The notes below the pieces were generated by a model. It saw only the letters and a program-made list of their open reading frames with translations. It had not been told where the DNA came from and ran no database searches. A stretch of 64,000 nucleotides of DNA from the NCBI RefSeq assembly GCF_002843315.1, contig NZ_MVDD01000005.1, positions 1 to 64,000 on the forward strand, written 5' to 3'. Position 1 is the first letter of the stretch. The number at the start of each line of letters is the position of its first letter. Shown here in pieces: positions 8,632 to 27,961 of the stretch. The position numbers and the translations under genes were made by a program. This DNA comes from Labilibaculum filiforme. Lineage in GTDB: Bacteria; Bacteroidota; Bacteroidia; Bacteroidales; Marinifilaceae.

Positions 8632-9096
8632 TTAGCTAAGTCTGATTTTTAAAACCACCCAACCAGCTTACAAATTATTACTTAGGGTGAATTGCTAACC
8701 ATTTACAATAAAGCCAGAGGAATTAAAGATAATGATATATAATTAGCTAATGCTACAAATGATCCTCTCTTGTGAAGGATTATGGGTTTTTGTAAGCATA
8801 TTCTGAAATTTTAATTTAGTTCGGGATAATTCTTTTTGACATACAAGCTTAAAATTGGACGATATCCACATGAAAATTACGTTTGGGTTCATGAGTTAAT
8901 TCTATAATCAGATTTCTGAAAATAATGAAGAACTAGCATTACTTTTTCAGTCCCTCCTACTTCTCATAAACTTGACACATTTGACACATTGAAATTTTAC
9001 TAATTTTACTTAACTTGCTTTTCAATTCGAATATTGCAAGTACAATCAACTACAAAACAGCTACTTGACACAAGATTGAAACGACAGAATAAAATT
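8632..9096. other. Intergenic region upstream of the cas operon
   Basis: About 465 bp between divergent pyk and cas6, so it should hold both promoters. I see no exact TAnnTTTG box on either strand. A tandem TTGACACAT-TTGACACAT motif at about 8970-8987 lies 110 bp before cas6 and could be a promoter or operator. The second copy of the 27-nt repeat is at 8803-8829. Confidence 0.5.
8803..8829. repeat. 27-nt direct repeat, copy B (upstream of pyk)
   Basis: Same orientation as 6930-6956 and identical apart from the position after TTCGGGA and the first base. It lies 1.87 kb from copy A, between pyk and the cas operon. Confidence 0.7.
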
Positions 9097-9813
9097 ATGA
9101 GATTTGAATTAACATTGAACCGCACCACAAAGCAGCGAATGCTGCCCATGGATTACCAGTATTACATTAGTGCCTGGATTTACAAAGTATTAAAACACGC
9201 CGATGCCAACTTTGCCGATTTTCTGCACAACAAAGGTTATGGAAGAGATAAAAACACCAGCAAACTTTACAAACTGTTCTGTTTTTCGAAGTTGAACTTT
9301 GGAAAGCCAAAACTCTGGAAAGAAAAGAAACTTTTTGAGATTTCAGCTCATGAAATTAAACTGCAAATTTCGTTCGATGTGAACGAAGTGGCTTCCAATT
9401 TCATAAAAGGTTTGTTTATGCAACAAGAATTTTATTTGGGCGATAAATTTAACGGTATCGATTTTAAAGTTGCTAATGTGGCTGCACTGGCTGAACCTGA
9501 TTTTACAGAAACAATGTGCTACCATTTACAAACTCCTTGGGTGATTAGTTATCAAAAAGAAAATGACAAACCTCCGAGATATCTTTCGCCTACGGATGAA
9601 CTGTTCGATAGCCTGACAGTAAAGCATCTGACTGAGAAATACGAAAACACCCGCCAAGCAAAATTAATTGAGCCAGACCAGATCAATGTTAAAAGACTAA
9701 ACGATTTTAAACGTGCTGGTTTTGTGATAAAACCTGGAACCAGAGAGCAAAGTCGCATTGTTGGAAATTTATTTCTTGACTATTTAAAAGTTGAAATGGT
9801 GATGAATTATTAA
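9097..9813 (+). CDS. cas6: Cas6-family protein, apparently lacking the C-terminal Gly-rich loop
   Basis: First gene of the cas operon. Cas6 cuts the pre-crRNA within each repeat. The start at 9097 gives a 238-aa protein beginning MRFELTLN, with the Cas6-typical early block LPMDYQYYISAWIYKVL and then FADFLHNKGY, FKLFCFSK-like and FEISAHEIKL. An earlier in-frame ATG at 9034 would add 21 unlikely residues. The protein ends shortly after the segment that normally precedes the glycine-rich RNA-binding loop (G-x-G-x-x-x-x-G-F-G), and no such loop is present. A REP palindrome begins 24 nt after the stop. I infer a truncated and perhaps inactive copy, complemented by the next gene. Confidence 0.75.
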   Translation: MRFELTLNRTTKQRMLPMDYQYYISAWIYKVLKHADANFADFLHNKGYGRDKNTSKLYKLFCFSKLNFGKPKLWKEKKLFEISAHEIKLQISFDVNEVASNFIKGLFMQQEFYLGDKFNGIDFKVANVAALAEPDFTETMCYHLQTPWVISYQKENDKPPRYLSPTDELFDSLTVKHLTEKYENTRQAKLIEPDQINVKRLNDFKRAGFVIKPGTREQSRIVGNLFLDYLKVEMVMNY

Positions 9814-9836
9814 AACTAATGGTAGGTAAATAAATT

Positions 9837-9867
9837 AACCTTCAAGGTTTTTAAAACCTTGAAGGTT
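9837..9867. repeat. REP palindrome (AACCTTCAAGG family), copy 1
   Basis: A perfect inverted repeat AACCTTCAAGG / CCTTGAAGGTT with a TTTTTAAAA centre. It sits between the two cas6 genes, 24 nt after the first one's stop. The same palindrome occurs at 16807-16837 just before a RAYT transposase gene, its likely partner. Confidence 0.85.
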
Positions 9868-9960
9868 AGAATAAAAAGAAACACTCTGAATATAGCAATT
9901 AATAAATATGAAGTTTTTAATAAAAGATTATGTACTCTAAAATAAAAATGAACTAAACAT

Positions 9961-10635
9961 ATGAGAATACACATAAAAACCACACCTTCAAAGCAAACTA
10001 TTGATTTCAACCATTTGCATTTGCTCACTGGAACCATCCATAAATGGTTTGGAAAAAATGAGTTTCATGATTCCATTTCGCTTTACTCATTCTCCAACTT
10101 AACAGGAGGTAAAGCATCAAAAAATGGACTAGACTTTCCGAACGGCGCCAGTTTCTTTATCAGTTGTTGGGATAATCAACAAGCCAAACTGCTAGTAACA
10201 GGAATCCAAAACCATCCAGAAATGTTTTTTGGCTTGAAAGTCGCTGAAATTATCTTACAGGAAGATCCCGAATTATCAACAAAATCGAGCTTCCAGGTTG
10301 GAAGTCCGATTTATATTCAGCGTAATCTAGAAAATGGCAGAAAAAAATTCTACTATTTCGATGATAAAGAATCTCCAGAACTTCTTGCAGAAACTCTTAC
10401 CTCAAAAATGATAAATGCTGGTTTAGCTGAAGATGAAACATTAAAAATAACTTTCGATAAAAACTATCGCAAAAAAGGCACTAAAAAAATCGATTATATC
10501 CGAGGCAATAAAGTCACACAAATTCGGGCAAGTTGGTGTCCTGTAATTATTGAAGGCAAACCAGAAACTAAAGCTTTCGCATGGAATGTAGGAATTGGGA
10601 ATAGTACTGGAATTGGCTTTGGAGCTATAAAATGA
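9961..10635 (+). CDS. cas6: Cas6-family CRISPR endoribonuclease (second copy)
   Basis: A 224-aa Cas6-type protein with the complete C-terminal glycine-rich loop GIGNSTGIGFGAIK. The N-terminal half has the block HLHLLTGTIHKWFG; its His is a candidate catalytic residue, as Cas6 enzymes often use a His here. Blocks ISLYSFSNLTGG and MFFGLKVAEI follow. It is separated from the truncated cas6 by a REP palindrome and lies 6 nt before cas5. It is very different in sequence from the first cas6, so it is not a recent duplicate. It is probably the enzyme that matures the 77-repeat array; this is inference. Confidence 0.8.
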   Translation: MRIHIKTTPSKQTIDFNHLHLLTGTIHKWFGKNEFHDSISLYSFSNLTGGKASKNGLDFPNGASFFISCWDNQQAKLLVTGIQNHPEMFFGLKVAEIILQEDPELSTKSSFQVGSPIYIQRNLENGRKKFYYFDDKESPELLAETLTSKMINAGLAEDETLKITFDKNYRKKGTKKIDYIRGNKVTQIRASWCPVIIEGKPETKAFAWNVGIGNSTGIGFGAIK

Positions 10636-10641
10636 GATAAT

Positions 10642-11244
10642 ATGGAAAAGATATTCGTAGTAAAATATACAGGTCCTTTTGGTTTTATAAAGCCATGGAC
10701 TGCTGTTCGCGATAGCGAAACCTACAGCCAACAATTTTTAACCCCTTCTATTGTCGCTGGAATAGAACGAAAACTATTTCCTGAATTATTGAAAGATGAT
10801 GATGGAGAAATTAAAAAGATTGTTGGACATCGGTTAAGCTATAAACAAATATCGCAACAACAAGAACAAATTCAACCACGAGGCTGGAACAAAAAAAGTA
10901 GTGGTGAAGAAAAAGGATTTCACCGACCTTATGCAATATTAGTTAGGGGTGTCCTCATTGAACCTGTTCTTTGGTTGGCATTTAAAACCATGAAAGATGC
11001 TTCAAGTGCATCAGAAGAACACATTTGTCTGTGTAGAAATGAAGATATTCTTTATCCTAACAGTGAAATAATTGAAGTTGCCAAAGATGAATTTAATACA
11101 GATCAAGATCAATTTGCAGGATTTGAACTGATATTTGAAAGAAACGATGAATCATTTCTTGTTGGATACAATCGAATAAAAAAGAATGAACCAATGTACG
11201 GTTACTTAAAAGTGTTAGGCACACCAGTAAAAACCAATTACTAA
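10642..11244 (+). CDS. cas5: Cas5-family Cascade subunit
   Basis: A 200-aa protein starting 6 nt after the second cas6. The N-terminus VVKYTGPFGFIKPWTAVRD followed by FLTPSIVAGIE has the layout of Cas5 proteins (GPFaxFrkp, then tppSxxxGlle), and its size is usual. Cas5 caps the 5' handle of the crRNA in the Cascade complex. In most I-B operons cas5 directly follows cas7; here it is upstream of cas3 and separated from cas8 and cas7. Assigned from motif layout and position. Confidence 0.7.
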   Translation: MEKIFVVKYTGPFGFIKPWTAVRDSETYSQQFLTPSIVAGIERKLFPELLKDDDGEIKKIVGHRLSYKQISQQQEQIQPRGWNKKSSGEEKGFHRPYAILVRGVLIEPVLWLAFKTMKDASSASEEHICLCRNEDILYPNSEIIEVAKDEFNTDQDQFAGFELIFERNDESFLVGYNRIKKNEPMYGYLKVLGTPVKTNY

Positions 11245-11255
11245 ATAAACCTGAA

Positions 11256-11711
11256 ATGGCACAATCATTATCAAAATTATATGTCCATTTGATTTACCAC
11301 ATAAAAAATACCTCGGTAGTAATCCGTGATGAAGAAAAACAGAAACTTTACGCCTATATGGGTTCTGTTTTAAAATCGAACGATTCAATTCCAATAATAA
11401 TTAATGGAACAGAAGACCACGTACATATTTTATGTGTGATGTCGAAAAATATTGCTCTTGCAAAACTGATAGAAGAAATAAAACGCCACAGCAGTAGGTG
11501 GATTAAAACACTTGATAAATATTATAATGATTTCGCATGGCAAGGAGGTTATGGAGGTTTCTCCGTTAGTCCATCCATTCATGACAAAACAAAACGGTAT
11601 ATCGAGAATCAAGAAGAACATCACAAGAAAAAAGACTTTAAAGAAGAATATTTAATGTTTTTGAAAGAATATGGAATTAAATACGATGAAAAATATTTAT
11701 GGTACGATTGA
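11256..11711 (+). CDS. IS200-like / REP-associated Y1 transposase
   Basis: A 151-aa HUH single-strand transposase. The metal-binding motif is DHVHIL (about residues 52-57) and the catalytic Tyr lies in KRYIENQEEHHKK (about residue 112). The blocks SLSKLYVHLIYHIKN, WQGGYGGFSVS and the C-terminal YLWYD are typical of the stand-alone IS200/IS605-type proteins of Bacteroidota. No TnpB is beside it. It starts 11 nt after cas5 in the same direction, and is followed by a dense group of palindromes (11715-11939) that look like its REP substrates. It is an insertion inside the cas operon. Confidence 0.85.
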   Translation: MAQSLSKLYVHLIYHIKNTSVVIRDEEKQKLYAYMGSVLKSNDSIPIIINGTEDHVHILCVMSKNIALAKLIEEIKRHSSRWIKTLDKYYNDFAWQGGYGGFSVSPSIHDKTKRYIENQEEHHKKKDFKEEYLMFLKEYGIKYDEKYLWYD

Positions 11712-11714
11712 TTT

Positions 11715-11939
11715 GCCCTTTCAGGGCGATTATTTGATGCGATGCATCAAACCCAGGGTTTCGCCCTGGGCTGAATTAAATTGGGCTTTCAGCCCGAAAA
11801 AATTTAATTCTTTGAATGTAATTTTCATCTAAATAATTAGTCCGTAACTATAATTGCCTGAAAGGCACATTGATTTTAGCCCAATGGCAACGCCTTGGGA
11901 GATTATAGCAACATTATATAATCTGCGGGCTGAAAGCCC
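11715..11939. repeat. REP/BIME-like palindrome cluster downstream of the IS200-like gene
   Basis: At least six short palindromes in 225 bp: GCCCT-TTC-AGGGC (11715-11727), TTTGATGC/GCATCAAA (about 11732-11750), CCCAGGG-TTTCG-CCCTGGG (11752-11770), GGGCT-TTC-AGCCC (11783-11795), TGCCT-GAA-AGGCA (11855-11867) and GGGCT-GAA-AGCCC (11927-11939). The GGGCT pair occurs in both orientations, as in BIMEs. The block fills the space between the transposase and cas3 and could form hairpins in the cas mRNA. Confidence 0.8.
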
Positions 11940-11967
11940 AATTAAACAGAAAATCAAAAAATAATAT

Positions 11968-14136
11968 ATGAACCAAGTTTGCCCACATATTAAAGCCAAA
12001 GGAAAGCCCGAAGAAACCACATTACATCAACATTTGATGGAGGTTAGCTTAGCCGTAGAAAAAATTGCTGGTGCTCTAAATTTTGATGCAGAGATAGCAC
12101 GATGCGGTGCTATTTTACATGATATTGGAAAAACCAGCTCTGTTTTTCAATCGCGATTAAATTCGAAAACAATACCTAAAACACCATTCAGGCATGAAAT
12201 AGCTTCCTGCTTTTTTCTTTCTGCTTTCCCAGAAAATATACATCCTCAACTAATCGAGATGGTAATTGCCCATCATAAATCAATTTTACATGATGCTAGA
12301 GATAAAGGAATACTCGATTTAGAAGAAGTACGCGGAGATACTTTTAGCCTTCACATAAAAGATTGGAATAACTGGAAGGTTGATGCTATAGAAATTTTAA
12401 ATGCATTAGGCATTAAAGCGGATAATATTTCGGAACAACAAGCACAAGAAAACTTTGATAAAGTTTATGACTATTGCGATGATATTGTACAAGAAAGAGG
12501 TTTTTCAGAGTGGAGAGGTCTGTTAATGGCAGCTGATCATTTTGCTTCTGCTCTATCGGAAAATACAGAAGAATATCTGAAACGCACTTTTCAAACTCCA
12601 AACCTTAACTTCTATAATCGTCAACATAAACTCTATCCTTTATCCGAAAAAAATAGCGTGTCAGATAAAAGACACACTATGGTTGTTGCTTGCACCGGAG
12701 CAGGAAAAACCGACTACTTATTTCGCAGATGCAAGGGTCGCATTTTTTACACACTTCCTTTTCAGGCTTCTATCAATGCCATGTATAAACGGGTAAAAAA
12801 TGATTTGAAAAATGACAATCCAAACTTGGACATTCGCTTACTGCATGCGTCTTCTTCTATTTCAGCAAAAGGAGCTACCAAAGAAGAAAAAATAATACAA
12901 GGACACGTTGGTGCAGCTGTTAAGGTGCTAACACCACACCAAATAGCTGCTATTGCCTTCGGAACAAATGGTTACGAAGCTATGCTTTTAGATATTAAAG
13001 GTTGCGATGTTATATTAGATGAAATTCACACCTATACCAATATTACAAGGGCTATTGTTCTTAAGATCATTCAAGTTCTTAACTATTTAAATTGCAAGAT
13101 TCATATTGGAACTGCAACTATGCCAAGCATTCTATACAATCGAATTATCAATATTTTAGGAAAAGAGAATGTATTGGAAGTAAAATTGGAAGATAAAGAA
13201 TTAACAGCTTTCAATAGGCATATTATCCATAAGTTGGATGATTGGGATCAGACCCATGAAATAATATCAACAGCAGTTCTCGAGGATAAAAAACTATTAG
13301 TAGTTTGCAACCGTGTTCAACATGCACAAGAACAATACAAAAAATTGTCGGACTTAAACCCTGAAATACCAATTCTTTTAATTCACAGTCGATTTAAAAA
13401 AGGGGATCGCGATGAAAAAGAACGATTACTTTTAGGACTGACAGAAGATGGAACACCCAACGGAAATTTCAACACTTCAAACAAAGCCTGCATTGTTGTA
13501 TCTACCCAAGTTGTTGAAGTTAGTCTGGACATTAGTTTCGATCTCATGATTACTGAAGCTGCTCCTCTTGATTCTCTTATTCAACGATTTGGACGTGTAA
13601 ACCGAAAACGGAACAATGACACCATTGGAAAATTCAAGCCTATTTATGTTTTAGCTCCACCTGAAGATGAAAAAGAAGCCTTGCCTTACGATCTTGAAAT
13701 TATAAACCGAAGTTATGCAACACTACCCAACTATGAAGTGCTTCAGGAAAATCAATTACAAGCTAAAATAGATCAAGTTTTTACTGAAATTGATTTTCTA
13801 AAAATTGAAGAACATTCGGTTTTTAAAGAAGATGGACGATGGACAATTGATAAACTCACTCATAATTCAAAAGCTATTTTACTTGACCTACTGGATATTG
13901 ACAGTGTGAATTGTATTTGTGAGGCGGATGAAGATGCATACCGTGAAGGAAATACCGAAACAAGAAGCAAACTCACCGTGAGTACGCGCTATTACATTGC
14001 CCAGAATCTAAATCAGCTTACTAAATGTGGAATCGAGCCTTTTATTTTACCCGATGCCGCTTATAGTAGCGAATTTGGTTTAGATGTATCAAAAGCAAAA
14101 CCAGAATTTTACGATACTAAATATTCATTCCTATAA
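11968..14136 (+). CDS. cas3: Cas3 helicase-nuclease (HD domain N-terminal)
   Basis: A 722-aa Cas3 that degrades target DNA after recruitment by Cascade. The N-terminal HD nuclease has ILHDIGK with His51-Asp52 and a downstream HH pair in IAHHKS. The helicase part shows Walker A CTGAGKT (about 241-247), the DExH-like box LDEIHTY (about 350), VVSTQVVEVSLDISFD, and motif VI QRFGRVNRKR (about 539-548). Domain order HD-helicase matches type I systems. It follows the REP cluster and precedes the cas8-like gene by 12 nt. Confidence 0.93.
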   Translation: MNQVCPHIKAKGKPEETTLHQHLMEVSLAVEKIAGALNFDAEIARCGAILHDIGKTSSVFQSRLNSKTIPKTPFRHEIASCFFLSAFPENIHPQLIEMVIAHHKSILHDARDKGILDLEEVRGDTFSLHIKDWNNWKVDAIEILNALGIKADNISEQQAQENFDKVYDYCDDIVQERGFSEWRGLLMAADHFASALSENTEEYLKRTFQTPNLNFYNRQHKLYPLSEKNSVSDKRHTMVVACTGAGKTDYLFRRCKGRIFYTLPFQASINAMYKRVKNDLKNDNPNLDIRLLHASSSISAKGATKEEKIIQGHVGAAVKVLTPHQIAAIAFGTNGYEAMLLDIKGCDVILDEIHTYTNITRAIVLKIIQVLNYLNCKIHIGTATMPSILYNRIINILGKENVLEVKLEDKELTAFNRHIIHKLDDWDQTHEIISTAVLEDKKLLVVCNRVQHAQEQYKKLSDLNPEIPILLIHSRFKKGDRDEKERLLLGLTEDGTPNGNFNTSNKACIVVSTQVVEVSLDISFDLMITEAAPLDSLIQRFGRVNRKRNNDTIGKFKPIYVLAPPEDEKEALPYDLEIINRSYATLPNYEVLQENQLQAKIDQVFTEIDFLKIEEHSVFKEDGRWTIDKLTHNSKAILLDLLDIDSVNCICEADEDAYREGNTETRSKLTVSTRYYIAQNLNQLTKCGIEPFILPDAAYSSEFGLDVSKAKPEFYDTKYSFL

Positions 14137-14148
14137 AATGAAAATACA

Positions 14149-15711
14149 ATGATAGCATCAACAATAGGACGCACTTTTTTGAAAGTGTTCAATGAAAAAA
14201 CAGAAAATAATTATACTGCCAAGGAGTTCTTTGAAAAGGAATATTTTGAAACTTTTTACAATCATTCAAAGTACTTTTCTTGGCCACAAAATTCTCCCTT
14301 TGTGCAAGGAATAACGACACTTGAAAATGGTATACTCGGATTAATGAGTGTTGTAAAAAATGAAAATGGCGATACCAAACAATTTAGTACTGATGAAGAA
14401 CTTGAGGACTGGTGCAACAAATTAAAAAAGGATCCAAATTTTGGAGGTTTTAAGGTTAAAACAAAGAAGCAAGTAAAGATTATCCAAAAATTAAGCCTTG
14501 CAAAAAGAAAAGAACTCCTAGAAGAATTTACAAATAAAGTAATTGAAGCGAAGAATAATAAAAACATAGAAGCAAGTATTGCCATTGGTTTTCCTGCTTC
14601 TGAATTAAAAGAATATGCTACAACATCAGGAGCTGTAACCGATATTACTATTGAAAACGATATTGAAGACATATATCTTTCATGGATTGGTGGTGGCTTA
14701 TGTGTAGGAATCGCAGGTGGATATTCTATATTCTTTAATGAACCCAATATTCTTTTTAAACTTTATGAAGGATGGAAAATTTATCGAAACTATTTAAATG
14801 ATCAAAGCTTGCTTAAACTCAGAGGAAATCAAATAAATACATGGAACGGACAATGGTTAAATTTTGCATTTAATAAACGTTTCCGCGAAGATTTTGACTT
14901 TGCTCAACTTCACACTCAGGATGTATTTTCAGTCACTGAACAAGTAATTGAAGTCAATACTATTAACTGGAGTGAACTATTTTTTAATATCTCCAATAAA
15001 TATCCACAACAAACCTTAACTGGCTATGTATTTAGTTTAGGTCAAACCAATAAAACCCTAGGTTTTTACCCTTTTCATTTCGATAAGGCAAAAACACTTA
15101 TTCACTATTACAAACTACTATTCGGAGAACAAGCCGCTTTAACTGAAGCCAAAGATTATGAAGCCTTATTTGGTATTCATATAAAACGTGCATGCGAATT
15201 AGGTTCTATTGGACTCCAAGCATTGGAACCCAAAAACTTGCGAAAATATTTTGGTAATGACTCTACATTAACATTAGCCAAACCAAAATTGAATCAAAAA
15301 GGAAACGAAACCGATGAAGATTATGGAATACGCAAATGCAAAGTTCTTCAAAAAGATTACGATAATATAATTACTTACAGAACATATAAAACTTGGTTAT
15401 TAGCTATGATTACAAAAAACAAAGAAGAATCGTTAGAATATACCAACGAAGTAGCTAGGGCACTTCTTGCGTATAGAGCAAAAGCAACCAAACTTGACAG
15501 AAAGAACTTAATTCAATCTGACATTTTGGGCGCTAAATCAAAAAAAGCATTTATCGATGCTTTAGTTACAATCATTTCAGAAATAGATGAGAATGGATTG
15601 TTAGTAATGAAACAACTGCGTGATAGAGTACATATGATGTCGGCTGAGGATTTTGGCTATTTCGTTGTACTACTAAAATTTGATTACGCTTACGAAGAAA
15701 GAAATTCATAA
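14149..15711 (+). CDS. Putative Cas8 large subunit of Cascade
   Basis: A 520-aa protein between cas3 and cas7, at the place where the large Cascade subunit is expected. I do not recognise a clear Cas8b or Cst1 signature. Visible features are a charged N-terminal half with a helical KKKQVKIIQKLSLAKRKELLEEF stretch (split by normal residues), a glycine-rich SWIGGGLCVGIAGG segment at about 178-191, and a helical C-terminal third. Length and position are right for Cas8, which binds the PAM and the target DNA. A diverged or new Cas8 subtype is likely; identity is from context. Confidence 0.6.
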   Translation: MIASTIGRTFLKVFNEKTENNYTAKEFFEKEYFETFYNHSKYFSWPQNSPFVQGITTLENGILGLMSVVKNENGDTKQFSTDEELEDWCNKLKKDPNFGGFKVKTKKQVKIIQKLSLAKRKELLEEFTNKVIEAKNNKNIEASIAIGFPASELKEYATTSGAVTDITIENDIEDIYLSWIGGGLCVGIAGGYSIFFNEPNILFKLYEGWKIYRNYLNDQSLLKLRGNQINTWNGQWLNFAFNKRFREDFDFAQLHTQDVFSVTEQVIEVNTINWSELFFNISNKYPQQTLTGYVFSLGQTNKTLGFYPFHFDKAKTLIHYYKLLFGEQAALTEAKDYEALFGIHIKRACELGSIGLQALEPKNLRKYFGNDSTLTLAKPKLNQKGNETDEDYGIRKCKVLQKDYDNIITYRTYKTWLLAMITKNKEESLEYTNEVARALLAYRAKATKLDRKNLIQSDILGAKSKKAFIDALVTIISEIDENGLLVMKQLRDRVHMMSAEDFGYFVVLLKFDYAYEERNS

Positions 15712-15731
15712 ATCTTAAAAAATATAAAATA

Positions 15732-16787
15732 ATGAATACTATTTATATCAGAACATTAAAGAGAGCAGAACACACCGTATTTTGTGTGGCCGATGGTCAG
15801 AAAACATACTACGATCCTCAATTCAACAAGAGTGTTCCCTATTCCAGTGGACAACAAGTAAAGCGATCGATGATCGATGCACTTTCAAACGCCTTAAACG
15901 AGGTTCCATCTCCAACTACATTTTTATTTGATGTTAATAAAAAAGGAGAAATGAAAGAAGGTGAAGTTTTTGCAACTTGCGATCCATCTTATGCAGACCA
16001 ACTATTTGGCGGATGGATGAAAGCTTCCAAAGGTGGAAAAGATAGAACCATAAAACGTAGAAGTCCATTATCAATATCATCAATGCGAGGTTTACATCCA
16101 TTATTAGCAGGCATTGACAAGGAAAACGTTTCATTTGATAGAAGCGACAGGCCTAACAACAAGGTTATTGTGCGAGATGAAAAAAATAATATTCTGGATG
16201 AAGAACAAATTACTGCTTTGCTTGAAGGAAAAGACCGAAGTTTAAGCCGTAAATGGATACCTGACAACAAAAGAGCCGTTGGTCTTTTTGTGCAAGACAT
16301 GGCCATCGACCTTCGTCGTTTATTCTGTGTACTACTGAATAAATTGGAACCTGAAATTACTGCAGAAACAGAAGCCAAACTTCGCGAGGTTGGTTGGGAA
16401 GAAATCCAAACCGTTTTTGGAACTTGTTTAGTGACTCCTAAAGCTGTTCGTGAAAAATTAATTCCCGCTTTAGCCCACGCAATTATAAACTGGACAATCA
16501 CTTCCAATCAATCGCGAACTTTTAGTCTAATGGAAACTTTAGCTGTTTCTGTATCAGATAATGCCAATAAAATTGCAGGAAGTATTCGGGCTAAGCTAAA
16601 AGAGGAAGAAGATAACAAAGCAGAACCTATTATCGAAGAAGAAATGACTGGTGTTGAAAGTTTCGTTACTCTTTCGGCTGGTGGTTATATCAGAACTAAA
16701 AAAGAAAGTGCAGATGCCCTTGATAAAGCAGAACAATCGTTAATCGACAAGATGCTTGCTTTCGACTACGAAAATCAATTAAATTAA
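15732..16787 (+). CDS. cas7: Cas7-family Cascade backbone subunit
   Basis: A 351-aa protein 20 nt after the cas8-like gene. The segment VPYSSGQQVKRSMIDAL near residues 36-52 fits the Cas7 pattern SxxxSGQxIKRxL. The acidic C-terminal part ends in a helix. Several copies of Cas7 coat the crRNA spacer in Cascade. The second RAYT insertion follows directly and separates it from cas4. Confidence 0.75.
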   Translation: MNTIYIRTLKRAEHTVFCVADGQKTYYDPQFNKSVPYSSGQQVKRSMIDALSNALNEVPSPTTFLFDVNKKGEMKEGEVFATCDPSYADQLFGGWMKASKGGKDRTIKRRSPLSISSMRGLHPLLAGIDKENVSFDRSDRPNNKVIVRDEKNNILDEEQITALLEGKDRSLSRKWIPDNKRAVGLFVQDMAIDLRRLFCVLLNKLEPEITAETEAKLREVGWEEIQTVFGTCLVTPKAVREKLIPALAHAIINWTITSNQSRTFSLMETLAVSVSDNANKIAGSIRAKLKEEEDNKAEPIIEEEMTGVESFVTLSAGGYIRTKKESADALDKAEQSLIDKMLAFDYENQLN

Positions 16788-16806
16788 AACAGATCATTTC
16801 ATACCA

Positions 16807-16837
16807 GACCTTCAAGGTTTTAAAAACCTTGAAGGTC
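16807..16837. repeat. REP palindrome (ACCTTCAAGG family), copy 2
   Basis: A perfect inverted repeat GACCTTCAAGG / CCTTGAAGGTC with a TTTTAAAAA centre, 17 nt before the RAYT start at 16855. It is the same family as 9837-9867. Confidence 0.9.
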
Positions 16838-16854
16838 TAAAAAATGAAAAAACA

Positions 16855-17451
16855 ATGGCAAATCCACAAATCCCTTTAGAGCCTGATCAGTTTTACCACA
16901 TCTACAATCGTGGAATAAACAGTTGTTCTCTGTTTAAGGAGGCAGGCAATTACGAACATTTTCTGAGATTGTATGACAAGTACATTTCGCCGGTTGCCAA
17001 AACTTTTGCTTGGGTACTAATGGGAAATCATTTTCATTTGCTGGTATACATTACAAAACCAGAAGGTCTCGAAGATCTTCGTCCTTTAGAGCTTAATAAA
17101 CGTATTAATCAACAATTCTCGAATCTGTTTAATGCTTACACAAAGGCCTTCAATAAAAGATACAATCGTACGGGAAGTCTTTTTGAACACAGTTTTCGGC
17201 GAAAAATAATTGATTCTAAAGATTATTTAAGACAAGTAGTACTTTACATACACAACAACCCCGTACATCACAATTTTTGCGATCATCCAATAGAGTATCC
17301 ATGGTCATCGTACTTAACTTGCATATCGGTACAAACAACAAAACTAAATCGAGATGCAGTAATGGGCTGGTTCGATCATCAGGCAAATTTCAAATTAAGG
17401 CATAATCAAAAACTCGATATCGAAAAAATAGAACAATGGCTGGATTTGTAA
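16855..17451 (+). CDS. REP-associated tyrosine transposase (RAYT)
   Basis: A 198-aa HUH protein of the TnpA-REP group. The N-terminal block QFYHIYNRGIN, the metal-binding motif MGNHFHLLV (His-x-His near residues 58-60), and the catalytic Tyr region LRQVVLYIHNNPVHH are all present, as is YPWSSY in the C-terminal part. RAYTs are domesticated single-copy transposases that act on REP palindromes. The cognate palindrome is 17 nt upstream, with another copy 7 kb away between the cas6 genes. It interrupts the cas operon between cas7 and cas4, in the same direction. Confidence 0.92.
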   Translation: MANPQIPLEPDQFYHIYNRGINSCSLFKEAGNYEHFLRLYDKYISPVAKTFAWVLMGNHFHLLVYITKPEGLEDLRPLELNKRINQQFSNLFNAYTKAFNKRYNRTGSLFEHSFRRKIIDSKDYLRQVVLYIHNNPVHHNFCDHPIEYPWSSYLTCISVQTTKLNRDAVMGWFDHQANFKLRHNQKLDIEKIEQWLDL

Positions 17452-17483
17452 TGTTTCAACAAAAAAATCAATTCTTATAGCTT

Positions 17484-17996
17484 ATGCATATCACTGGCAC
17501 ACACTTCAATTATTACATGGTTTGTCATCGCAAGCTGTGGTTATTTGCGAATAATATCCAAATGGAACAGTCTTCGGATTTGGTTTACGAGGGAAAAATG
17601 ATTCACGAAAGCAGTTATCAGCAACGAAGTTCGAAATACGAAGAAATTGCAATAGATGGTATTAAAGTGGACTACTACGATACTAAGAATAAGGTGGTTC
17701 ACGAAATTAAAAAATCGAGTAAGTTATTCGAATCTCATGTTTGGCAGGTAAAGTACTATATCTATGTATTGGAATTAAATGGTATCGAAGGCGTAAGTGG
17801 CATTCTGGAATATCCGAAAGAACGCAAAACAGAAGAGGTGTTTTTGAGTATCCCCGATAAGGAGAGAATTGCGGAACTACTTGAAGAAATTGATACAATT
17901 ATTCACTCCGATAAATGCCCTGAAGTCATAAATAAGCCTAAATGTAAAAAATGCTCTTACTTCGACTTTTGTTACAGCTCAGAAAACGAAAAGTAA
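17484..17996 (+). CDS. cas4: Cas4 nuclease / adaptation factor
   Basis: A 170-aa Cas4 of the PD-(D/E)XK nuclease family, which trims prespacers and helps select PAM-proximal ends. The four Fe-S cysteines are Cys14 and the C-terminal CxxC-x5-C set Cys154, Cys157 and Cys163. The nuclease core shows GIKVDYYDTKNKVVHEIKKS, containing the D...ExK catalytic arrangement. It lies 30 nt before cas1, as usual in I-B adaptation modules. Confidence 0.92.
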   Translation: MHITGTHFNYYMVCHRKLWLFANNIQMEQSSDLVYEGKMIHESSYQQRSSKYEEIAIDGIKVDYYDTKNKVVHEIKKSSKLFESHVWQVKYYIYVLELNGIEGVSGILEYPKERKTEEVFLSIPDKERIAELLEEIDTIIHSDKCPEVINKPKCKKCSYFDFCYSSENEK

Positions 17997-18025
17997 TATT
18001 TTATATCAATAAATCTTAATCTGAA

Positions 18026-19030
18026 ATGAAGAAAACCTATTACTTATTCAATCCTGGACGTTTATCGAGAAAAGACAATACGCTAAAATTTACACCTGTT
18101 GATGAAGAGGGAAATGATTTGAAACCACGATACCTGCCTGTTGAACAAGTTGACCAATTGTATGTTTTGGGAGCCTTGGATGCCAATTCGGCGTTGTATA
18201 ACTTTTTAGGAAAAAATGATATTGCCGTTCATTTTTACGATTACTATGAAAATTATACCGGATCGTTTGCTCCGAAATGCAAATTGCTTTCGGGAAAAAT
18301 GCTAATAGCTCAAACTCAGGCCTACTTAAAAAAATCGAAACGTATTATTGTTGCCCAGTCTTTTATTGAAGGCGCATCGTTTAATATGCTAAAGAATTTA
18401 AGATACTACGATAATCGAGGTAAGGATTTAATGCCTGTAATTGAAAGTATTGAGCTTCTTCGGAAAAAAATTGGTGAGACAAAAGAAATTGATGAATTGA
18501 TGGGTATTGAAGGAAATATCCGCAAAAATTATTACGATGCGTTCAATTTAATCATCAACGATCATGAAATGGGAATTCGGACTAAACGTCCTCCTTTAAA
18601 TATTGTAAACAGTCTGATATCCTTTGGAAATATGATGTGCTACTCGGAGTGCTTGCGCGCCATTCAAAAAACACAATTGGAGCCCACCATTAGTTTCCTG
18701 CACGAACCAGGAGAACGAAGATTTAGTCTGGCTTTAGATTTGGCAGAAGTATTTAAACCTTTTTTAGTAGATCGTGTCATCTTTAAGGTGTTAAATAAAA
18801 AGGAAATTCAGGAAAATGATTTCGAAGAAAAATTGAACCGAATTGTTTTGAAAGAGAAAGGAAAGAAAAAATTTATACAAGCTTTTGAGAAACGATTGGA
18901 GGAAACCATTAAACATCGGAGTTTAAACAGGAATGTTAGCTACAAACATTTAATAAAATTGGAATGCTATAAATTACAAAAACATCTGTTAGGTATAGAA
19001 GAATATAAACCCTTTAAAATTTACTGGTAA
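18026..19030 (+). CDS. cas1: Cas1 spacer integrase
   Basis: A 334-aa Cas1, the metal-dependent integrase that inserts new spacers at the leader end. The N-terminal beta domain begins KKTYYLFNPGRLSRKDNTL, followed by the helical catalytic domain with MGIEGNIRKNYYDAF (catalytic Glu), MMCYSECLRA, FLHEPGERRFSLALDLAEVFKP (catalytic His and acidic residues). Length fits the I-B branch. Its stop codon overlaps the cas2 start by one base (TAATG at 19028-19032), so the two are translationally coupled. Confidence 0.96.
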   Translation: MKKTYYLFNPGRLSRKDNTLKFTPVDEEGNDLKPRYLPVEQVDQLYVLGALDANSALYNFLGKNDIAVHFYDYYENYTGSFAPKCKLLSGKMLIAQTQAYLKKSKRIIVAQSFIEGASFNMLKNLRYYDNRGKDLMPVIESIELLRKKIGETKEIDELMGIEGNIRKNYYDAFNLIINDHEMGIRTKRPPLNIVNSLISFGNMMCYSECLRAIQKTQLEPTISFLHEPGERRFSLALDLAEVFKPFLVDRVIFKVLNKKEIQENDFEEKLNRIVLKEKGKKKFIQAFEKRLEETIKHRSLNRNVSYKHLIKLECYKLQKHLLGIEEYKPFKIYW

Positions 19031-19296
19031 TGTATGTAATTTTGGTTTACGACATGGGCGAAAAACGAGTTGGGAAAATGTTGAAATTGTGCCGACAATA
19101 TTTAAACTGGATTCAGAATTCGGTTTTTGAGGGAGAAATAACAGAGGTGAAATTAAAAGAATTAATTTTAAAAGCTGAATTTATTATGAATGAAGAAGAA
19201 CATGATAGTTTAATTCTGTTTAAAAGCCGAGAACAAAAATGGCTGGAAAAAGAGGTGATTGGACATGAAAAAAATGATTTGGATCAATTCCTTTAG
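19030..19296 (+). CDS. cas2: Cas2 adaptation protein
   Basis: An 88-aa ferredoxin-fold protein that dimerises and bridges two Cas1 dimers. It begins MYVILVYDMGEKRVGKML with the conserved acidic residue in VYDM, followed by LNWIQNSVFEGEIT. It overlaps the last base of cas1. It ends 222 bp before the first CRISPR repeat, so the cas operon reads directly into the leader. Confidence 0.95.
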   Translation: MYVILVYDMGEKRVGKMLKLCRQYLNWIQNSVFEGEITEVKLKELILKAEFIMNEEEHDSLILFKSREQKWLEKEVIGHEKNDLDQFL

Positions 19297-19518
19297 TTGT
19301 CGATAAGGCATTACCAGTTCTTTCACTCCCTTTTTTTTAATGTTATTTCGTATTTTACGTTCTTTGACATACTGAAAACACAACTATTTCGACATTGTTG
19401 TCGAAACCCCGTATATTTTGTACTTTTACCCATCGACAACTTAGACCTATGGTTTAAGTTGAATCTGAAAATCTTAATTTGCTGATTTTCAGGTGTTTTT
19501 TTTCGAGTCGTCGATCGA
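19297..19518 (+). promoter_or_regulatory. CRISPR leader with repeated TTGTCGA boxes
   Basis: A 222-bp AT-rich stretch between cas2 and the first repeat, the place and size of a leader. AGTTGTCGAT (19295-19304) and its exact reverse complement ATCGACAACT (19432-19441) flank a central palindrome TTTCGACA-TTGT-TGTCGAAA (19387-19406). The TTGTCGA core is thus present four times. A TTGACA box lies at 19364-19369. A final inverted repeat GAGTCG / CGACTC (19505-19521) overlaps the first three bases of repeat 1. These are candidates for Cas1-Cas2 or host-factor docking and for array transcription. Confidence 0.7.
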
Positions 19519-22500
19519 CTCTCAATCGCACCATACTGGAATTGAAATTGATTATGATTTATCAGATATGTCACAAGATAAACACTCTCAATCGCACCAT
19601 ACTGGAATTGAAATTTATTTAACCGAGAAACTAATCCGGCTAAGCCTGGCTCTCAATCGCACCATACTGGAATTGAAATTGCAGCATTTTTAAGCATTCG
19701 ATCTTCAATCTTTTTCTCTCAATCGCACCATACTGGAATTGAAATATTACTTGATAAGGCTGATCAAAAATATCTTTTCGTACTCTCAATCGCACCATAC
19801 TGGAATTGAAATGAAAACAAGCCGTTTGGGCTTTGAGATGAATCTACAACCTCTCAATCGCACCATACTGGAATTGAAATTGGAAATTTTTAATTGAACA
19901 GCATCCAACAGCCCTCTCTCAATCGCACCATACTGGAATTGAAATAATAAACAAAGTAAGCCAATGGTCTTTCGATGTAGCTCTCAATCGCACCATACTG
20001 GAATTGAAATGTATAAATTAACGCAGGAGTTTCGCCAACACAAGACTCTCAATCGCACCATACTGGAATTGAAATAAATAATCAAGGTAAGTACTTGGCT
20101 AGATGAATACGTCTCTCAATCGCACCATACTGGAATTGAAATAAATTATAACAGGGGATTATAAATCGCATCGCATTCTCTCAATCGCACCATACTGGAA
20201 TTGAAATGGGGATAAGGAACTGCTTGAAAGAATGGAAATTGAAACTCTCAATCGCACCATACTGGAATTGAAATACGCTCGCATACAGTTTGTAACACCG
20301 CATAAAAATACTCTCAATCGCACCATACTGGAATTGAAATAAATAATCAAGGTAAGTACTTGGCTAGATGAATACGCTCTCAATCGCACCATACTGGAAT
20401 TGAAATTTGCTCATCGAGTTTTGCAAGAAACTTTTATGCGGTGCTCTCAATCGCACCATACTGGAATTGAAATGAACCAAGGGCATCACTCCATGCTAGA
20501 CTTAATTTTCTCTCAATCGCACCATACTGGAATTGAAATTTAGGAATGAACGCTTATACAAGACTATTACTAACACTCTCAATCGCACCATACTGGAATT
20601 GAAATTAAATACGTAGCTCCAAAATTCGATAAGGCAACAGCTCTCTCAATCGCACCATACTGGAATTGAAATATAGAAGAAGAAGTAGACCCTAAAGGGG
20701 GTAAAAACTCTCAATCGCACCATACTGGAATTGAAATAGTAAAGAGCATAGCGATAAAGGGGTTGATGATTTGCTCTCAATCGCACCATACTGGAATTGA
20801 AATAAAGACTTGGTGTGGATGCTAACTCTTTTTTTACACTCTCTCAATCGCACCATACTGGAATTGAAATCTCATATTGTCGAATACGTTCTTCATAGCC
20901 TTTCTACTCTCAATCGCACCATACTGGAATTGAAATAACAACATTGAAGATCATAATAATACCGAGAATTTAACTCTCAATCGCACCATACTGGAATTGA
21001 AATTCGCTTGACAGGTCGTAATCGATAGAACAAAGGTAACTCTCAATCGCACCATACTGGAATTGAAATCAGGTAAAAACAAAGCTGATTTATTAGATCT
21101 TTATTCTCTCAATCGCACCATACTGGAATTGAAATTCTTTAACGACCCATCACGCCCAACCATCTCAATCCTCTCAATCGCACCATACTGGAATTGAAAT
21201 CTAACAGGCTTGTACTTCGCAAACCTGTTAATAAGCTCTCAATCGCACCATACTGGAATTGAAATCTAAACGTACCACTACCTGCATTAACTATATTCCT
21301 ACTCTCAATCGCACCATACTGGAATTGAAATTTACAACGAAATTTGCACCAACTTTTTTACGCTTCTCTCAATCGCACCATACTGGAATTGAAATATGTA
21401 ACAAATATGCACGGCAAATTACCTATGTATACTCTCAATCGCACCATACTGGAATTGAAATAAAATCACCAAGCATTTGAACATCTTTTTTATTATAAGC
21501 TCTCAATCGCACCATACTGGAATTGAAATTCAGAAAGTGAGAATTTGCCTTTTAGTTTTTTTAATCCTCTCAATCGCACCATACTGGAATTGAAATAAAA
21601 AAAGGAGCGTTTAAGCTCCTTTTTCTATTTAACTCTCAATCGCACCATACTGGAATTGAAATTAAGGCAGGCATGACAGGCGATCAAAAAGAGGCATTCT
21701 CTCAATCGCACCATACTGGAATTGAAATATGGAAATTTAAGGTTGATTAATGTTAAAGCAGGTACCTCTCAATCGCACCATACTGGAATTGAAATTGATG
21801 CCAAGGGCAATCGCCAAAATAACGAGTAGTCTCTCAATCGCACCATACTGGAATTGAAATCAGTTTAAACAAACCTGAAAAAATGGTCTATACTCTCTCT
21901 CAATCGCACCATACTGGAATTGAAATCATTGTAAATAAGCTTACCGCTATTGGTTACATGCTCTCTCAATCGCACCATACTGGAATTGAAATAACACAAC
22001 AGTAGTGGTGAAGCTCGTGGTGTTTACCGCTCTCAATCGCACCATACTGGAATTGAAATTGGACTCAGCGCGGTGGTCAAGTCGAGCTACCGTTCTCTCA
22101 ATCGCACCATACTGGAATTGAAATAATGGAATAAATAGTGTAGCTTTCAGGCTTCCTTTCTCTCAATCGCACCATACTGGAATTGAAATAACCGAAATGT
22201 ACACTCGTAAAGATGATACTAAGGCTCTCAATCGCACCATACTGGAATTGAAATTGGAGTTATCTTGAATTGTCCACATCTAAGTCTTAATCTCTCAATC
22301 GCACCATACTGGAATTGAAATTTTATTGGGAACACCTGCTATACTGGTAAACTCCTGCTCTCAATCGCACCATACTGGAATTGAAATTCAATGTTCATTC
22401 TCATCAACATATTTTTAACAGCAACTCTCAATCGCACCATACTGGAATTGAAATTTGCTATTTGCTGCAGTTGCTAAACCTTTATTCATTCTCTCAATCG

Positions 22501-24565
22501 CACCATACTGGAATTGAAATAAAATATCAGCAATTGCAGTTCCAACCTTAGCCGATCCTCTCAATCGCACCATACTGGAATTGAAATGAAAAAGCAAACG
22601 AACTAGTATTTGAAGAGCTAGATCTCTCAATCGCACCATACTGGAATTGAAATGCTGAATATCAAGCTCATGGCGAAGGATATTACCAACTCTCAATCGC
22701 ACCATACTGGAATTGAAATAAAAAAGAAGTACACACAAAAAGAAGCAATTTATCACTCTCAATCGCACCATACTGGAATTGAAATAAGCAAACACCCGAA
22801 GCGTTGTCGAACTTATTGCAAACTCTCAATCGCACCATACTGGAATTGAAATTACATTATTAATTCCTAAATGACATGAACATCGCTCTCTCAATCGCAC
22901 CATACTGGAATTGAAATACGAAATTCCTGCGCCCAATAATGACCATTCGTTTTCTCTCAATCGCACCATACTGGAATTGAAATAACTTAAACTCTCAATT
23001 TGTAACCTCAGATGCTACGGCTCTCAATCGCACCATACTGGAATTGAAATGTAAAATGGGTCGTCTTGTACCAATAATGTGCGAAGCTCTCAATCGCACC
23101 ATACTGGAATTGAAATACGTCACTTTCTAAAAGACGACAAATTCCAATACTTCTCTCAATCGCACCATACTGGAATTGAAATTAAGAAAGCAACCAAATT
23201 TACCGTTAAATCGGTCGGCTCTCAATCGCACCATACTGGAATTGAAATACATCAAAAGAGGGGCTGCTTTATGGTGATGATTGGACTCTCAATCGCACCA
23301 TACTGGAATTGAAATCTAGTAGCGTGCCTTTATCATCCTCTTTGACCTCTCTCTCAATCGCACCATACTGGAATTGAAATCGCATTTTCCACAAGGTATT
23401 GTGATTCGCACACGCTCTCTCAATCGCACCATACTGGAATTGAAATAGCTTCGTAGTCTTGCTTGTCTTTTTTGTCTAACTCTCTCAATCGCACCATACT
23501 GGAATTGAAATCACTTAACATGGTAGCTTCCTATTCCAGAGGCTCTTCTCTCAATCGCACCATACTGGAATTGAAATTTCATGCTGATTTTGTACTGTAC
23601 GAAGCAAGAAAAGACTCTCAATCGCACCATACTGGAATTGAAATAAGTTGTGTCCAATGGATTACCTAAACTACGACTTGCCTCTCAATCGCACCATACT
23701 GGAATTGAAATCACGAAAATATAGACTTATCAATTGATATAGGTGAACTCTCAATCGCACCATACTGGAATTGAAATTTACTTTCAACACTAATTTTAAT
23801 ACACATATCTCCCTCTCAATCGCACCATACTGGAATTGAAATTTGCTGTAAAGACGTTATGGACTCCGAATATATCACCTCTCAATCGCACCATACTGGA
23901 ATTGAAATAGCGAAAGCGCAAAACTAAGAAGAGAAAATTTAATTACTCTCAATCGCACCATACTGGAATTGAAATCTTTTAGCCCGTTATCAAAAGTCCA
24001 TATTTTAAACCCTCTCAATCGCACCATACTGGAATTGAAATAAGCAATCGACAAGTTAAAAGAAAAATTAAAAGGCTCTCAATCGCACCATACTGGAATT
24101 GAAATATGAGAATCACACCGTCAATTACATCGATTTTGTTTGCTCTCAATCGCACCATACTGGAATTGAAATTACCTCGAACCATTCTCTTACGATCATG
24201 TTATCCACTCTCAATCGCACCATACTGGAATTGAAATTAACGAATTAAAAAAACGAAAGGCTATGAAATTTGCTCTCAATCGCACCATACTGGAATTGAA
24301 ATTCATCATAGAGCCGTTTTTAATGGATAATAAGAGGCTCTCTCAATCGCACCATACTGGAATTGAAATTGTGTAGGCACGCTTCCCGAACTGGTTATAA
24401 ACTACTCTCAATCGCACCATACTGGAATTGAAATAAAGCAGGGTTAACCGCAACACCCTCAAACATTTCCTCTCAATCGCACCATACTGGAATTGAAATC
24501 ATCGACAGTGAGGTTTGGCTTAAAAAACCTGACGGCTCTCAATCGCACCATACTGGAATTGAAAT
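19519..24565 (+). CRISPR. CRISPR array, 77 repeats and 76 spacers
   Basis: The 30-nt repeat starts CTCTCAATCGCACC and ends TGGAATTGAAAT. I counted 77 copies by eye and saw no variant, including the last one at 24536-24565. Spacers are 34 to 38 nt, mostly 36, for a unit of about 66 nt. The ATTGAAAT end is typical of I-B repeats and places the 8-nt crRNA handle on the plus strand, so transcription runs away from cas2. Spacers 9 (20076-20112) and 13 (20341-20376) are the same sequence. Spacer 32 (21597-21632) is a terminator-like hairpin. The perfect repeats with a full cas set suggest an active locus. Confidence 0.98.
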
Positions 24566-24650
24566 ACATATGCCGTACTATTTCCAATAAATTCATTCCC
24601 ACCTGATATTCGAATTGATCCCAATTTTTGAAACTGATCCTGAATTTACC
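24566..24650. other. CRISPR trailer region
   Basis: 85 bp from the last repeat to the tRNA-Leu terminator. No partial repeat is seen. The array transcript runs into the terminator hairpin of the opposing tRNA gene, which has an A-run before and a T-poor tail on this strand, so it is a weak terminator in this direction. Confidence 0.5.
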
Positions 24651-24688
24651 ACAAAAAAAAAATCCTTCCGAAAATATCGAAAGGATCT
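24651..24688 (-). terminator. Rho-independent terminator of tRNA-Leu
   Basis: On the minus strand ATCCTTTCG / CGGAAGGAT (24662-24670 with 24679-24687, one G-T pair) is followed by a run of nine Ts. It starts seven bases past the tRNA 3' end. Confidence 0.85.
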
Positions 24689-24693
24689 TTTTG

Positions 24694-24775
24694 TACCCAG
24701 GGCCGGGATCGAACCGGCACGGGTTGCCCCACTGGTGTTTGAGACCAGCGCGTCTACCAATTCCGCCACCTGGGC
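24694..24775 (-). tRNA. tRNA-Leu (anticodon CAA)
   Basis: An 82-nt class II tRNA. The acceptor arms are GCCCAGG and CCTGGGT with a G1-U72 pair. The anticodon arm CTGGT-CTCAAAC-ACCAG has anticodon CAA, which reads UUG codons. It has the long variable arm expected for Leu (GGGG-CAA-CCC type) and a normal T arm with GGTTCGATCC. The CCA end is not encoded. A consensus promoter lies 20 bp upstream and a terminator just downstream. Confidence 0.95.
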
Positions 24776-24794
24776 ATTGCTTTTGAATGCGATG

Positions 24795-24826
24795 CAAATA
24801 TAGACCTTTGTTTCAATCTCACAAAA
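24795..24826 (-). promoter_or_regulatory. Promoter of tRNA-Leu
   Basis: On the minus strand TTTTG, 19 nt, TATATTTG: the -7 box is at 24795-24802 and the -33 TTG at 24822-24824. The -7 box ends 19 bp before the tRNA 5' end, which is the right distance. Confidence 0.85.
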
Positions 24827-25149
24827 CAAAAACACTATTTTTTTTCGAAAAAAACTTCTCCCCTAAAATCTCTGTAAAGCAAGCCTACCGCAGATGTACT
24901 GAGCTTCATTTAATTATCCATTATGAAATTCATTATTTTAATTGCGTTATTAATGGCATTGAAGAACTAAAACTTGCACTACAAACGAAAAAATAGGTAA
25001 CATTCCCGCTTCGCAGGCAAAATCAACTTAGCAATTCACATCAGGAATTTCTATATTAGCATAAAGATTATTGATTTGAAATATTCTACTTGCAAAACTA
25101 CATTTGATAAAAATCATTTCACACAAAACATAAACTAAACTTTTCTAAC
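24827..25149. other. Intergenic region, nothing recognised
   Basis: About 320 bp between the tRNA-Leu promoter and the DHOD-like gene. It is AT-rich. I see no gene or hairpin. Near 25085 TTCTACTTGC is a partial -7-like motif that could belong to the downstream gene. Confidence 0.4.
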
Positions 25150-26142: not shown

Positions 26143-26205
26143 AACTATTTTCTATCTGCGAAAGCAAGTTAGGAATTATAATAAAAATAGAAATTAGAAT
26201 TGTCC

Positions 26206-27920: not shown

Positions 27921-27961
27921 ACACAACACACCAAGCACTTACATTTTAAAAGTAGGAGAAT

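What the first reader, a model, noticed from the sequence alone, without database searches (positions are those of the whole stretch)
21597..21632. A spacer that is itself a terminator-like hairpin
Spacer 32 consists of an A-run with GGAGC, GTTTAA, then GCTCC with a T-run: a complete intrinsic terminator shape. It was probably copied from a phage terminator. Transcribed on the plus strand it may end the pre-crRNA there, silencing the 44 spacers beyond it, unless Cas proteins or antitermination prevent this.
Basis: partly seen in the sequence, partly recalled or inferred. Interest (0 to 1): 0.6.

Follow-up and report, generated by a model that had tools for sequence, protein, structure and literature searches.

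The report
Terminator-shaped spacer in a CRISPR array
One of 76 CRISPR spacers looks like a signal that stops transcription, but such spacers turn up about as often as foreign DNA would supply them, and this array's leader carries the same "keep going" signal as ribosomal RNA genes, so the older part of the immune memory is probably not simply switched off.

Summary
Confirmed: spacer 32 of 76 (21597-21632) is a terminator-shaped hairpin (A7-GGAGC-GTTTAA-GCTCC-T5), the most stable of the 76, terminator-like on both strands. The array is type I-B, in a relative of Labilibaculum. Its source is unknown: no protospacer was found, nor a second copy in the own genome.

Whether it silences spacers 33-76 cannot be decided from sequence. 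Three results argue against simple silencing. (1) The leader carries an exact rRNA-type boxA; its only other copy in the 5.2 Mb assembly lies before 23S rRNA. A matching element stands at a nearly fixed place in 61 of 65 related leaders. (2) The array's own leader has a terminator-like hairpin just before repeat 1. (3) In 3,435 related spacers, strong terminator-like ones are as common on the transcribed strand (6) as on the other (5); phage DNA predicts 3.1.

Against: a promoter-like pair lies downstream of boxA, so boxA may not be transcribed; a standard scan lists neither spacer 32 nor the leader hairpin; the counts are small. boxA in CRISPR leaders is already published; the leader's boxA-plus-hairpin anatomy is the more interesting by-product.

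The parts
21597..21632 (+). Spacer 32: terminator-like hairpin A7-GGAGC-GTTTAA-GCTCC-T5-CTATTTAA, near-palindromic
   Evidence: not listed by the scan
19519..24565 (+). CRISPR array, 77 identical 30-nt repeats, 76 spacers
   Evidence: no other copy of 26 nt of the repeat with up to 3 mismatches in the own genome
19359..19371 (+). boxA-like element GTTCTTTGACATA in the leader, 147 nt before repeat 1; identical to the copy before 23S rRNA in the same genome
19397..19440 (+). GTTGTCGA ... TCGACAAC dyad, conserved at nearly the same place in related leaders; holds a Bacteroidota-type promoter-like pair (TTG 19398-19400, TACTTTTA 19421-19428)
   Evidence: promoter consensus recalled
19463..19503 (+). 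Leader hairpin (11-bp stem, 10-nt loop) followed by G and T8: terminator-like, 15 nt before repeat 1
   Evidence: -14.9 kcal/mol for 19450-19518; 36-nt piece -11.9, z -6.3; missed, whose loop limit is 8
24662..24693 (.). Hairpin with T-run at the end of the array, before a tRNA gene on the minus strand: probable natural terminator
   Evidence: -11.0 kcal/mol for 24645-24695; listed on the minus strand only; tRNA
9034..19296 (+). Type I-B cas genes: cas6, cas6, cas5b, (IS200-like ORF), cas3, cas8b, cas7b, (REP-associated transposase-like ORF), cas4, cas1, cas2

Best explanation
Spacer 32 is a bidirectional terminator-type hairpin that entered the array by ordinary acquisition from foreign DNA of unknown identity (inferred). 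It acts at most as a partial stop. The polymerase that transcribes this array probably carries a boxA/Nus antitermination complex like the one on rRNA (inferred from the boxA in the leader), and it has already passed a hairpin plus T8 of similar form in the leader before reaching repeat 1 (shown as sequence, inferred as event). So crRNAs from spacers 33-76 are probably still made, perhaps at reduced level. The crRNA of spacer 32 itself would fold on itself and probably guides poorly (inferred). Shown: the hairpin, the boxA and its conservation, the leader hairpin, and no detected strand depletion. Not shown: transcription start, read-through, crRNA levels.
For: boxA: exact GTTCTTTGACATA occurs 2 times in the 5.2 Mb assembly, in this leader and between 16S and 23S rRNA. 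Of 65 leaders (window plus 64 of 80 relatives), 59 match at least 11 of its 13 bases and 61 at least 10; of these 61, 57 end 142-148 nt and 4 end 162-165 nt before repeat 1. In 16 of these genomes a 16-nt form occurs 25 times, in 12 of the 16: 13 CRISPR leaders, 6 rRNA spacers before 23S, 6 elsewhere; the control (pattern read backwards) has 8 matches. Leader hairpin: own leader -14.9 kcal/mol with T8; over 65 leaders mean z -1.37, with 21 of 65 at z -2 or lower, against mean z -0.14 and -0.42 (6 and 7 of 65) in two control stretches; at least 6 T of 8 in 58 of 65; with the T-run kept and the stem part shuffled, 24 of 65 against 1.2 expected at -4 kcal/mol. Terminator-like spacers at or below -8 kcal/mol: 6 of 3,435 sense, 5 antisense, 3.1 expected from phage DNA, 0.6 from shuffles. 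All 77 repeats are identical on both sides of spacer 32. Literature passages: boxA relieves polarity in synthetic arrays (PMC7862264); the rRNA complex probably also hinders intrinsic termination (PMC10250234).
Against: No RNA data. A Bacteroidota-like promoter pair (TTG at -119, TAnnTTTG near -97) lies downstream of boxA in many leaders, and no TAnnTTTG cluster was seen upstream of boxA within the 210 nt scanned; if the array starts downstream, boxA is not in that transcript. The published role of boxA in arrays is against Rho; passages say the E. coli complexes act primarily against Rho (PMC12691694) and only 'probably' against intrinsic termination. Counts of 6 and 5 exclude only strong depletion (sense fraction 0.23-0.83), and at -5 kcal/mol and weaker antisense exceeds sense (12 sense against 16, 16 against 21, 24 against 32). 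Older spacers may simply not matter to fitness, which would also explain tolerance. Strict scans miss the leader hairpin of the window itself (one search gives -0.7; one search does not list it) because its loop is 10 nt, and find one at -4 kcal/mol in only 24 of 65 leaders.
Confidence: 0.5

Rival explanations
1. One reading: spacer 32 is an efficient intrinsic terminator, most pre-crRNA ends near 21624, and spacers 33-76 are silent or weak.
For: Fold -16.7 kcal/mol with flanks, z -5.5; a 5-bp core of four G-C and one A-T pair, extended by A-T pairs, and T5; sense stem -10.6 kcal/mol; fold similar to or stronger than that of the hairpin at the array's own end, -11.0.
Against: T-tract only five, not listed by the standard scan; hairpin of similar form already in the leader; rRNA-type boxA; no strand depletion detected at -8 kcal/mol; if spacers enter at the leader end, 31 were added after it.
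Confidence: 0.25
2. The leader elements are DNA-level signals for promoter activity or spacer integration, not RNA signals; boxA is not transcribed into pre-crRNA and there is no antitermination. Tolerance of spacer 32 only means that old spacers hardly matter.
For: Nearly fixed distance of the element to repeat 1, with a step of about 20 bp in 4 leaders; promoter-like pair inside the dyad downstream of boxA; dyad half-sites at one constant distance in the 64 leaders measured, although my choice of the 3' half-site favours this.
Against: The same element stands in transcribed rRNA spacers, and in the leaders it reads in the direction of the array.
Confidence: 0.3
3. The hairpin is inert: the interrupted T-tract is too weak to stop polymerase, and the spacer is merely a poor guide because its crRNA folds on itself.
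For: T5 then C; strict scan does not call it; spacer self-fold -14.0 kcal/mol.
Against: Five T directly after a G-C-rich stem is within the usual range of working terminators (recalled).
Confidence: 0.2

Closest known systems
boxA-mediated antitermination of CRISPR arrays (Stringer et al. 2020, eLife 9:e58182; not held, known here from its citation in PMC7862264, and recall)
   Same: boxA in the leader upstream of repeat 1, on the transcribed strand, same sequence as the rRNA boxA of the genome
   Different: Here type I-B in Bacteroidota; a terminator-like hairpin stands between boxA and repeat 1, and a natural spacer has terminator shape. No expression data. I could not check whether the paper already covers such leaders.
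rRNA operon antitermination complex (PMC10250234, passages)
   Same: Element identical over 13 nt to the copy before 23S in the same genome
   Different: Protein part and transcription of the element not tested here
Cbp1-Cren7 on Sulfolobales CRISPR arrays (PMC10883916, passages)
   Same: Another case in which arrays need protection against stray transcription signals carried in by spacers
   Different: Archaeal chromatin proteins acting on cryptic promoters, not on terminators
LoaP antitermination (PMC12691694, passages)
   Same: Leader with an RNA hairpin and an intrinsic terminator that an antitermination factor overrides
   Different: Bacillus NusG paralog on antibiotic operons; acts by antagonising NusA, with no other factor required according to the abstract

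Membership tests
Intrinsic transcription terminator | G-C-rich stem-loop | tested here: met
Intrinsic transcription terminator | T-tract directly after the stem | tested here: inconclusive
   T5 after the 5-bp core, but the scan that extends the stem through the T-tract does not list it
Intrinsic transcription terminator | Stops polymerase | not testable with these tools
   needs RNA data
boxA-antiterminated CRISPR array | boxA upstream of repeat 1 on the transcribed strand | tested here: met
boxA-antiterminated CRISPR array | same sequence as the rRNA boxA of that genome | tested here: met
   for the own genome; in relatives 6 of 12 non-CRISPR matches lie before 23S
boxA-antiterminated CRISPR array | boxA is transcribed with the array | tested here: inconclusive
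   promoter-like pair downstream of boxA; no start-site data
boxA-antiterminated CRISPR array | loss of boxA lowers distal crRNAs | not testable with these tools
   needs experiment
Type I-B CRISPR-Cas | cas8b, cas7b, cas5b, cas3, cas6, cas4, cas1, cas2 | tested here: met

The most novel reading that the evidence does not exclude
Bacteroidota type I-B leaders are regulated antitermination switches. A boxA (the rRNA signal) and a terminator-like hairpin with T-run stand in fixed order before repeat 1, so that only polymerase modified at boxA enters the array, and that modification also carries it through terminator-shaped spacers such as spacer 32. The array would then be a natural test of whether the boxA complex overrides intrinsic terminators.
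Probability: 0.25. Interest if true: 0.65.

Novelty: new member of a known kind. Interest (0 to 1): 0.38.

Why it matters
CRISPR arrays copy foreign DNA and so must take in transcription signals with it. I found no paper on natural terminator-like spacers among the papers listed by four searches (one search listed 10 of 55). This array has such a spacer in mid-array, with 31 spacers before and 44 after it as built-in controls, under a leader with an rRNA-type boxA. One RNA-seq run would show whether array transcription resists intrinsic terminators in vivo.

Tried and rejected
Protospacer search: the 21-mer core gave 1 hit in IMG/VR (L002, 33 of 36 identical, G+C 0.56; most of the match is the palindrome itself). 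The 16-mer core gave 21 loci including L002, the others at most 26 of 36. The phage collection gave 377 records, 299 of them Vibrio; the best are stretches in Vibrio, Acinetobacter and other phages, and 5 of the 20 listed carry a 'terminator' annotation by their depositors. I accepted none as the source, judging the hosts unrelated.

Origin from the own genome: no second copy of the stem with up to 1 mismatch, and none of the 34-nt core with up to 3 mismatches in 95 other genomes.

Shared spacers with the relatives, to date the array: none (the only matches were the own-genome locus L105 and L002 for spacer 32).

Depletion of terminator-like spacers on the transcribed strand: not detected for strong ones. 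The first version let the reverse complement of the repeat supply T's to the antisense count (29 sense against 54 antisense in all; 6 against 8 at -8 kcal/mol), so I used the version with the T-tract inside the spacer. The phage windows come from 50-kb pieces of four genomes with G+C 0.29-0.38, lower than the spacers' 0.39, so the expectation is rough.

Dyad as an RNA stem: inner arms pair more often than chance at some positions (for example 37 of 64 against 23.9), but the window's own dyad pairs only in its outer 8 bp; left open. A nine-row alignment of this stretch added nothing.

Rows dropped: 16 of 80 relatives had no array parsed downstream of cas1 (some lie near a contig end, not checked one by one); 7 of these 16 do have a boxA with at most 1 mismatch. 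Two of 65 leaders had no anchor. Only the best 80 of 235 Cas1 relatives were fetched. A Cas1 search of 395 genomes of the class (20 with a match) was not used further.

Papers: one search listed two, one used; searches listed none; one search listed one, not used; one search listed two and eight, from which I read passages of PMC12691694 and PMC10250234; two searches gave PMC10883916 (passages, used) and PMC10721215 (passages, nothing on natural arrays).

Full report
OBSERVATION. The window holds a CRISPR array of 77 identical 30-nt repeats and 76 spacers at 19519-24565. Spacer 32 (21597-21632) reads A7-GGAGC-GTTTAA-GCTCC-T5-CTATTTAA. In context it folds at -16.7 kcal/mol, with shuffles averaging -4.8 (z -5.5, 0 of 200 as good). 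Alone it is -14.0, the lowest of the 76; the next is spacer 26 at -11.3. It is near-palindromic, so it is terminator-like on both strands (sense stem -10.6, antisense -9.7). Two cautions: the T-tract is five T and then C, and the tool's consensus scan of 9000-28000 does not list it among its 25 sites, because the extended stem takes in the T-tract.

SETTING. Upstream lie the genes of a type I-B system: two cas6, cas5b, cas3, cas8b, cas7b, cas4, cas1 and cas2 at 19030-19296. The closest Cas1 relatives are from Labilibaculum and other Marinifilaceae (94-98% identity). The leader lies between cas2 and repeat 1, so transcription is taken to be on the plus strand. If new spacers enter at the leader end (established for CRISPR in general), spacers 1-31 are younger than spacer 32 and 33-76 older. 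The repeat occurs nowhere else in the genome.

ORIGIN OF THE SPACER. No protospacer was accepted. The own genome has no other copy of the stem with up to 1 mismatch. In 96 genomes (own and 95 others) the 34-nt core with up to 3 mismatches occurs only here. IMG/VR gave one contig with the 21-mer core (33 of 36 bases, G+C 0.56) and 21 loci with the 16-mer core, the other 20 at most 26 of 36. The best hits in the phage collection are terminator-like stretches in phages of Vibrio, Acinetobacter and others. A foreign terminator as the source is plausible; nothing proves it.

IS IT MORE THAN CHANCE? In 3,435 distinct spacers from 65 loci (window included), a stem at or below -10 kcal/mol with T-tract inside the spacer occurs 5 times on the sense strand and 3 times on the antisense strand; shuffled spacers give 0.2, and 36-nt windows from 50-kb pieces of four Bacteroidota phages (133,240 windows, both strands) would give 2.1. 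So these are real hairpins, present at about the rate foreign DNA would supply. A 76-spacer array holds one with probability 0.05 to 0.10.

ARE SUCH SPACERS PURGED? At -8 kcal/mol: 6 sense, 5 antisense, 3.1 expected from phage DNA. The sense fraction is 0.23-0.83 (95% interval), so strong depletion is not seen and mild depletion is not excluded. All six have further spacers beyond them, at positions 13 of 15 (two arrays that run to within 60 nt of the end of the stretch held), 22 of 48, 32 of 76, 16 of 90 and 39 of 66. Repeats beyond them carry 0, 1, 0, 0, 0 and 2 mismatches in all. At -5 kcal/mol and weaker, antisense exceeds sense (16 against 12, 21 against 16, 32 against 24), which leans the other way.

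THE LEADER. The 13-mer GTTCTTTGACATA at 19359-19371 is exact. It occurs twice in the assembly: here and in the spacer between 16S and 23S rRNA, where a boxA is expected (passages of PMC10250234 place a second set of boxB, boxA and boxC upstream of the 23S gene). Of 65 leaders, 20 match 13 of 13 bases, 27 match 12, 12 match 11, 2 match 10, 1 matches 9 and 3 match 8; of the 61 with 10 or more, 57 end 142-148 nt and 4 end 162-165 nt before repeat 1. In 18 of 64 related loci the array begins more than 520 nt beyond the end of cas1, up to 2,662; in 17 of these 18 boxA stays at its place before the array. In 16 relatives' genomes the pattern GNTCWTTGACNTANTG has 25 matches in 12 genomes: 13 in CRISPR leaders, 6 before 23S rRNA, 6 elsewhere; the backward control has 8, so the 6 elsewhere are what chance gives. 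This is the rRNA-type boxA. A boxA used in Legionella arrays, GTTCTTTAAAA, is similar (PMC7862264 passages).

Between boxA and repeat 1 lie two further elements. One is a GTTGTCGA...TCGACAAC dyad at nearly the same place (fold mean z -4.28 over 65 leaders). The other is a weaker hairpin followed by a T-run shortly before repeat 1 (mean z -1.37 against controls -0.14 and -0.42; z of -2 or lower in 21 of 65 against 6 and 7; 58 of 65 have at least 6 T of 8). In the window this hairpin is 11 bp with T8, -14.9 kcal/mol for 19450-19518, or -11.9 and z -6.3 for the 36-nt piece. It has the same form as spacer 32 (-14.0 alone) and is of the same order. Strict scans with a loop limit of 8 miss it. If transcription starts upstream of it, every polymerase that reaches spacer 1 has passed a terminator-like site.

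WHAT SPEAKS AGAINST. TAnnTTTG, the -7 element of Bacteroidota promoters (recalled), clusters near -97, -57 and -23 (30, 26 and 35 matches per 3-nt bin; shuffles reach at most 9). With TTG at -119 the first makes a good promoter, downstream of boxA. Then boxA would be transcribed only from further upstream, for example by read-through from the cas genes (one search lists no plus-strand terminator between cas2 and boxA). The transcription start is unknown, and this is the weakest step.

MECHANISM. Best reading (0.5): spacer 32 is a partial stop at most, and array transcription tolerates it, probably through boxA-dependent antitermination. Antitermination of arrays is published as acting against Rho (Stringer et al. 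2020, not held; described in passages of PMC7862264, PMC12691694 and PMC10883916). For intrinsic terminators PMC10250234 says the bound factors 'probably' prevent them. It becomes likely if boxA is not in the transcript.

NOVELTY. A terminator-shaped spacer is a rare but ordinary product of acquisition. boxA in CRISPR leaders is known; the original paper was not available, so I cannot say whether it lists Bacteroidota type I-B. I did not see the order boxA - dyad - terminator-like hairpin - repeat described in what the searches listed or in the passages I read. It is the part worth a specialist's look.

Noticed in passing
19397-19440 and related leaders: GTTGTCGA/TCGACAAC dyad at nearly constant spacing, inner arms complementary in many leaders though not in the window, with a promoter-like pair inside: operator, RNA stem or integration signal unknown.
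   Followed up: partly
19463-19503: Terminator-like hairpin with T8 in the leader just before repeat 1, similar in part of the relatives: possible attenuator or terminator of the cas operon.
   Followed up: partly
20076-20112 and 20341-20376: Spacers 9 and 13 are identical over 36 nt (spacer 9 has one extra T): independent re-acquisition or array rearrangement.
   Followed up: no
11256-11711 and 16855-17451: Two Y1-type transposase-like ORFs (IS200-like and REP-associated type, both below the NCBIfam cut-off) lie inside the cas operon; short palindromes near 11713-11867 look REP-like.
   Followed up: partly
9034-9813 and 9961-10635: Two different cas6 genes stand side by side at the start of the cas operon.
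   Followed up: no
21201-21235: Spacer 26 is the second most stable hairpin (-11.3 kcal/mol); the scan lists it as terminator-like on the minus strand.
   Followed up: no
593-670: Flavo-1 RNA match (Rfam RF01705, 52.3 bits).
   Followed up: no
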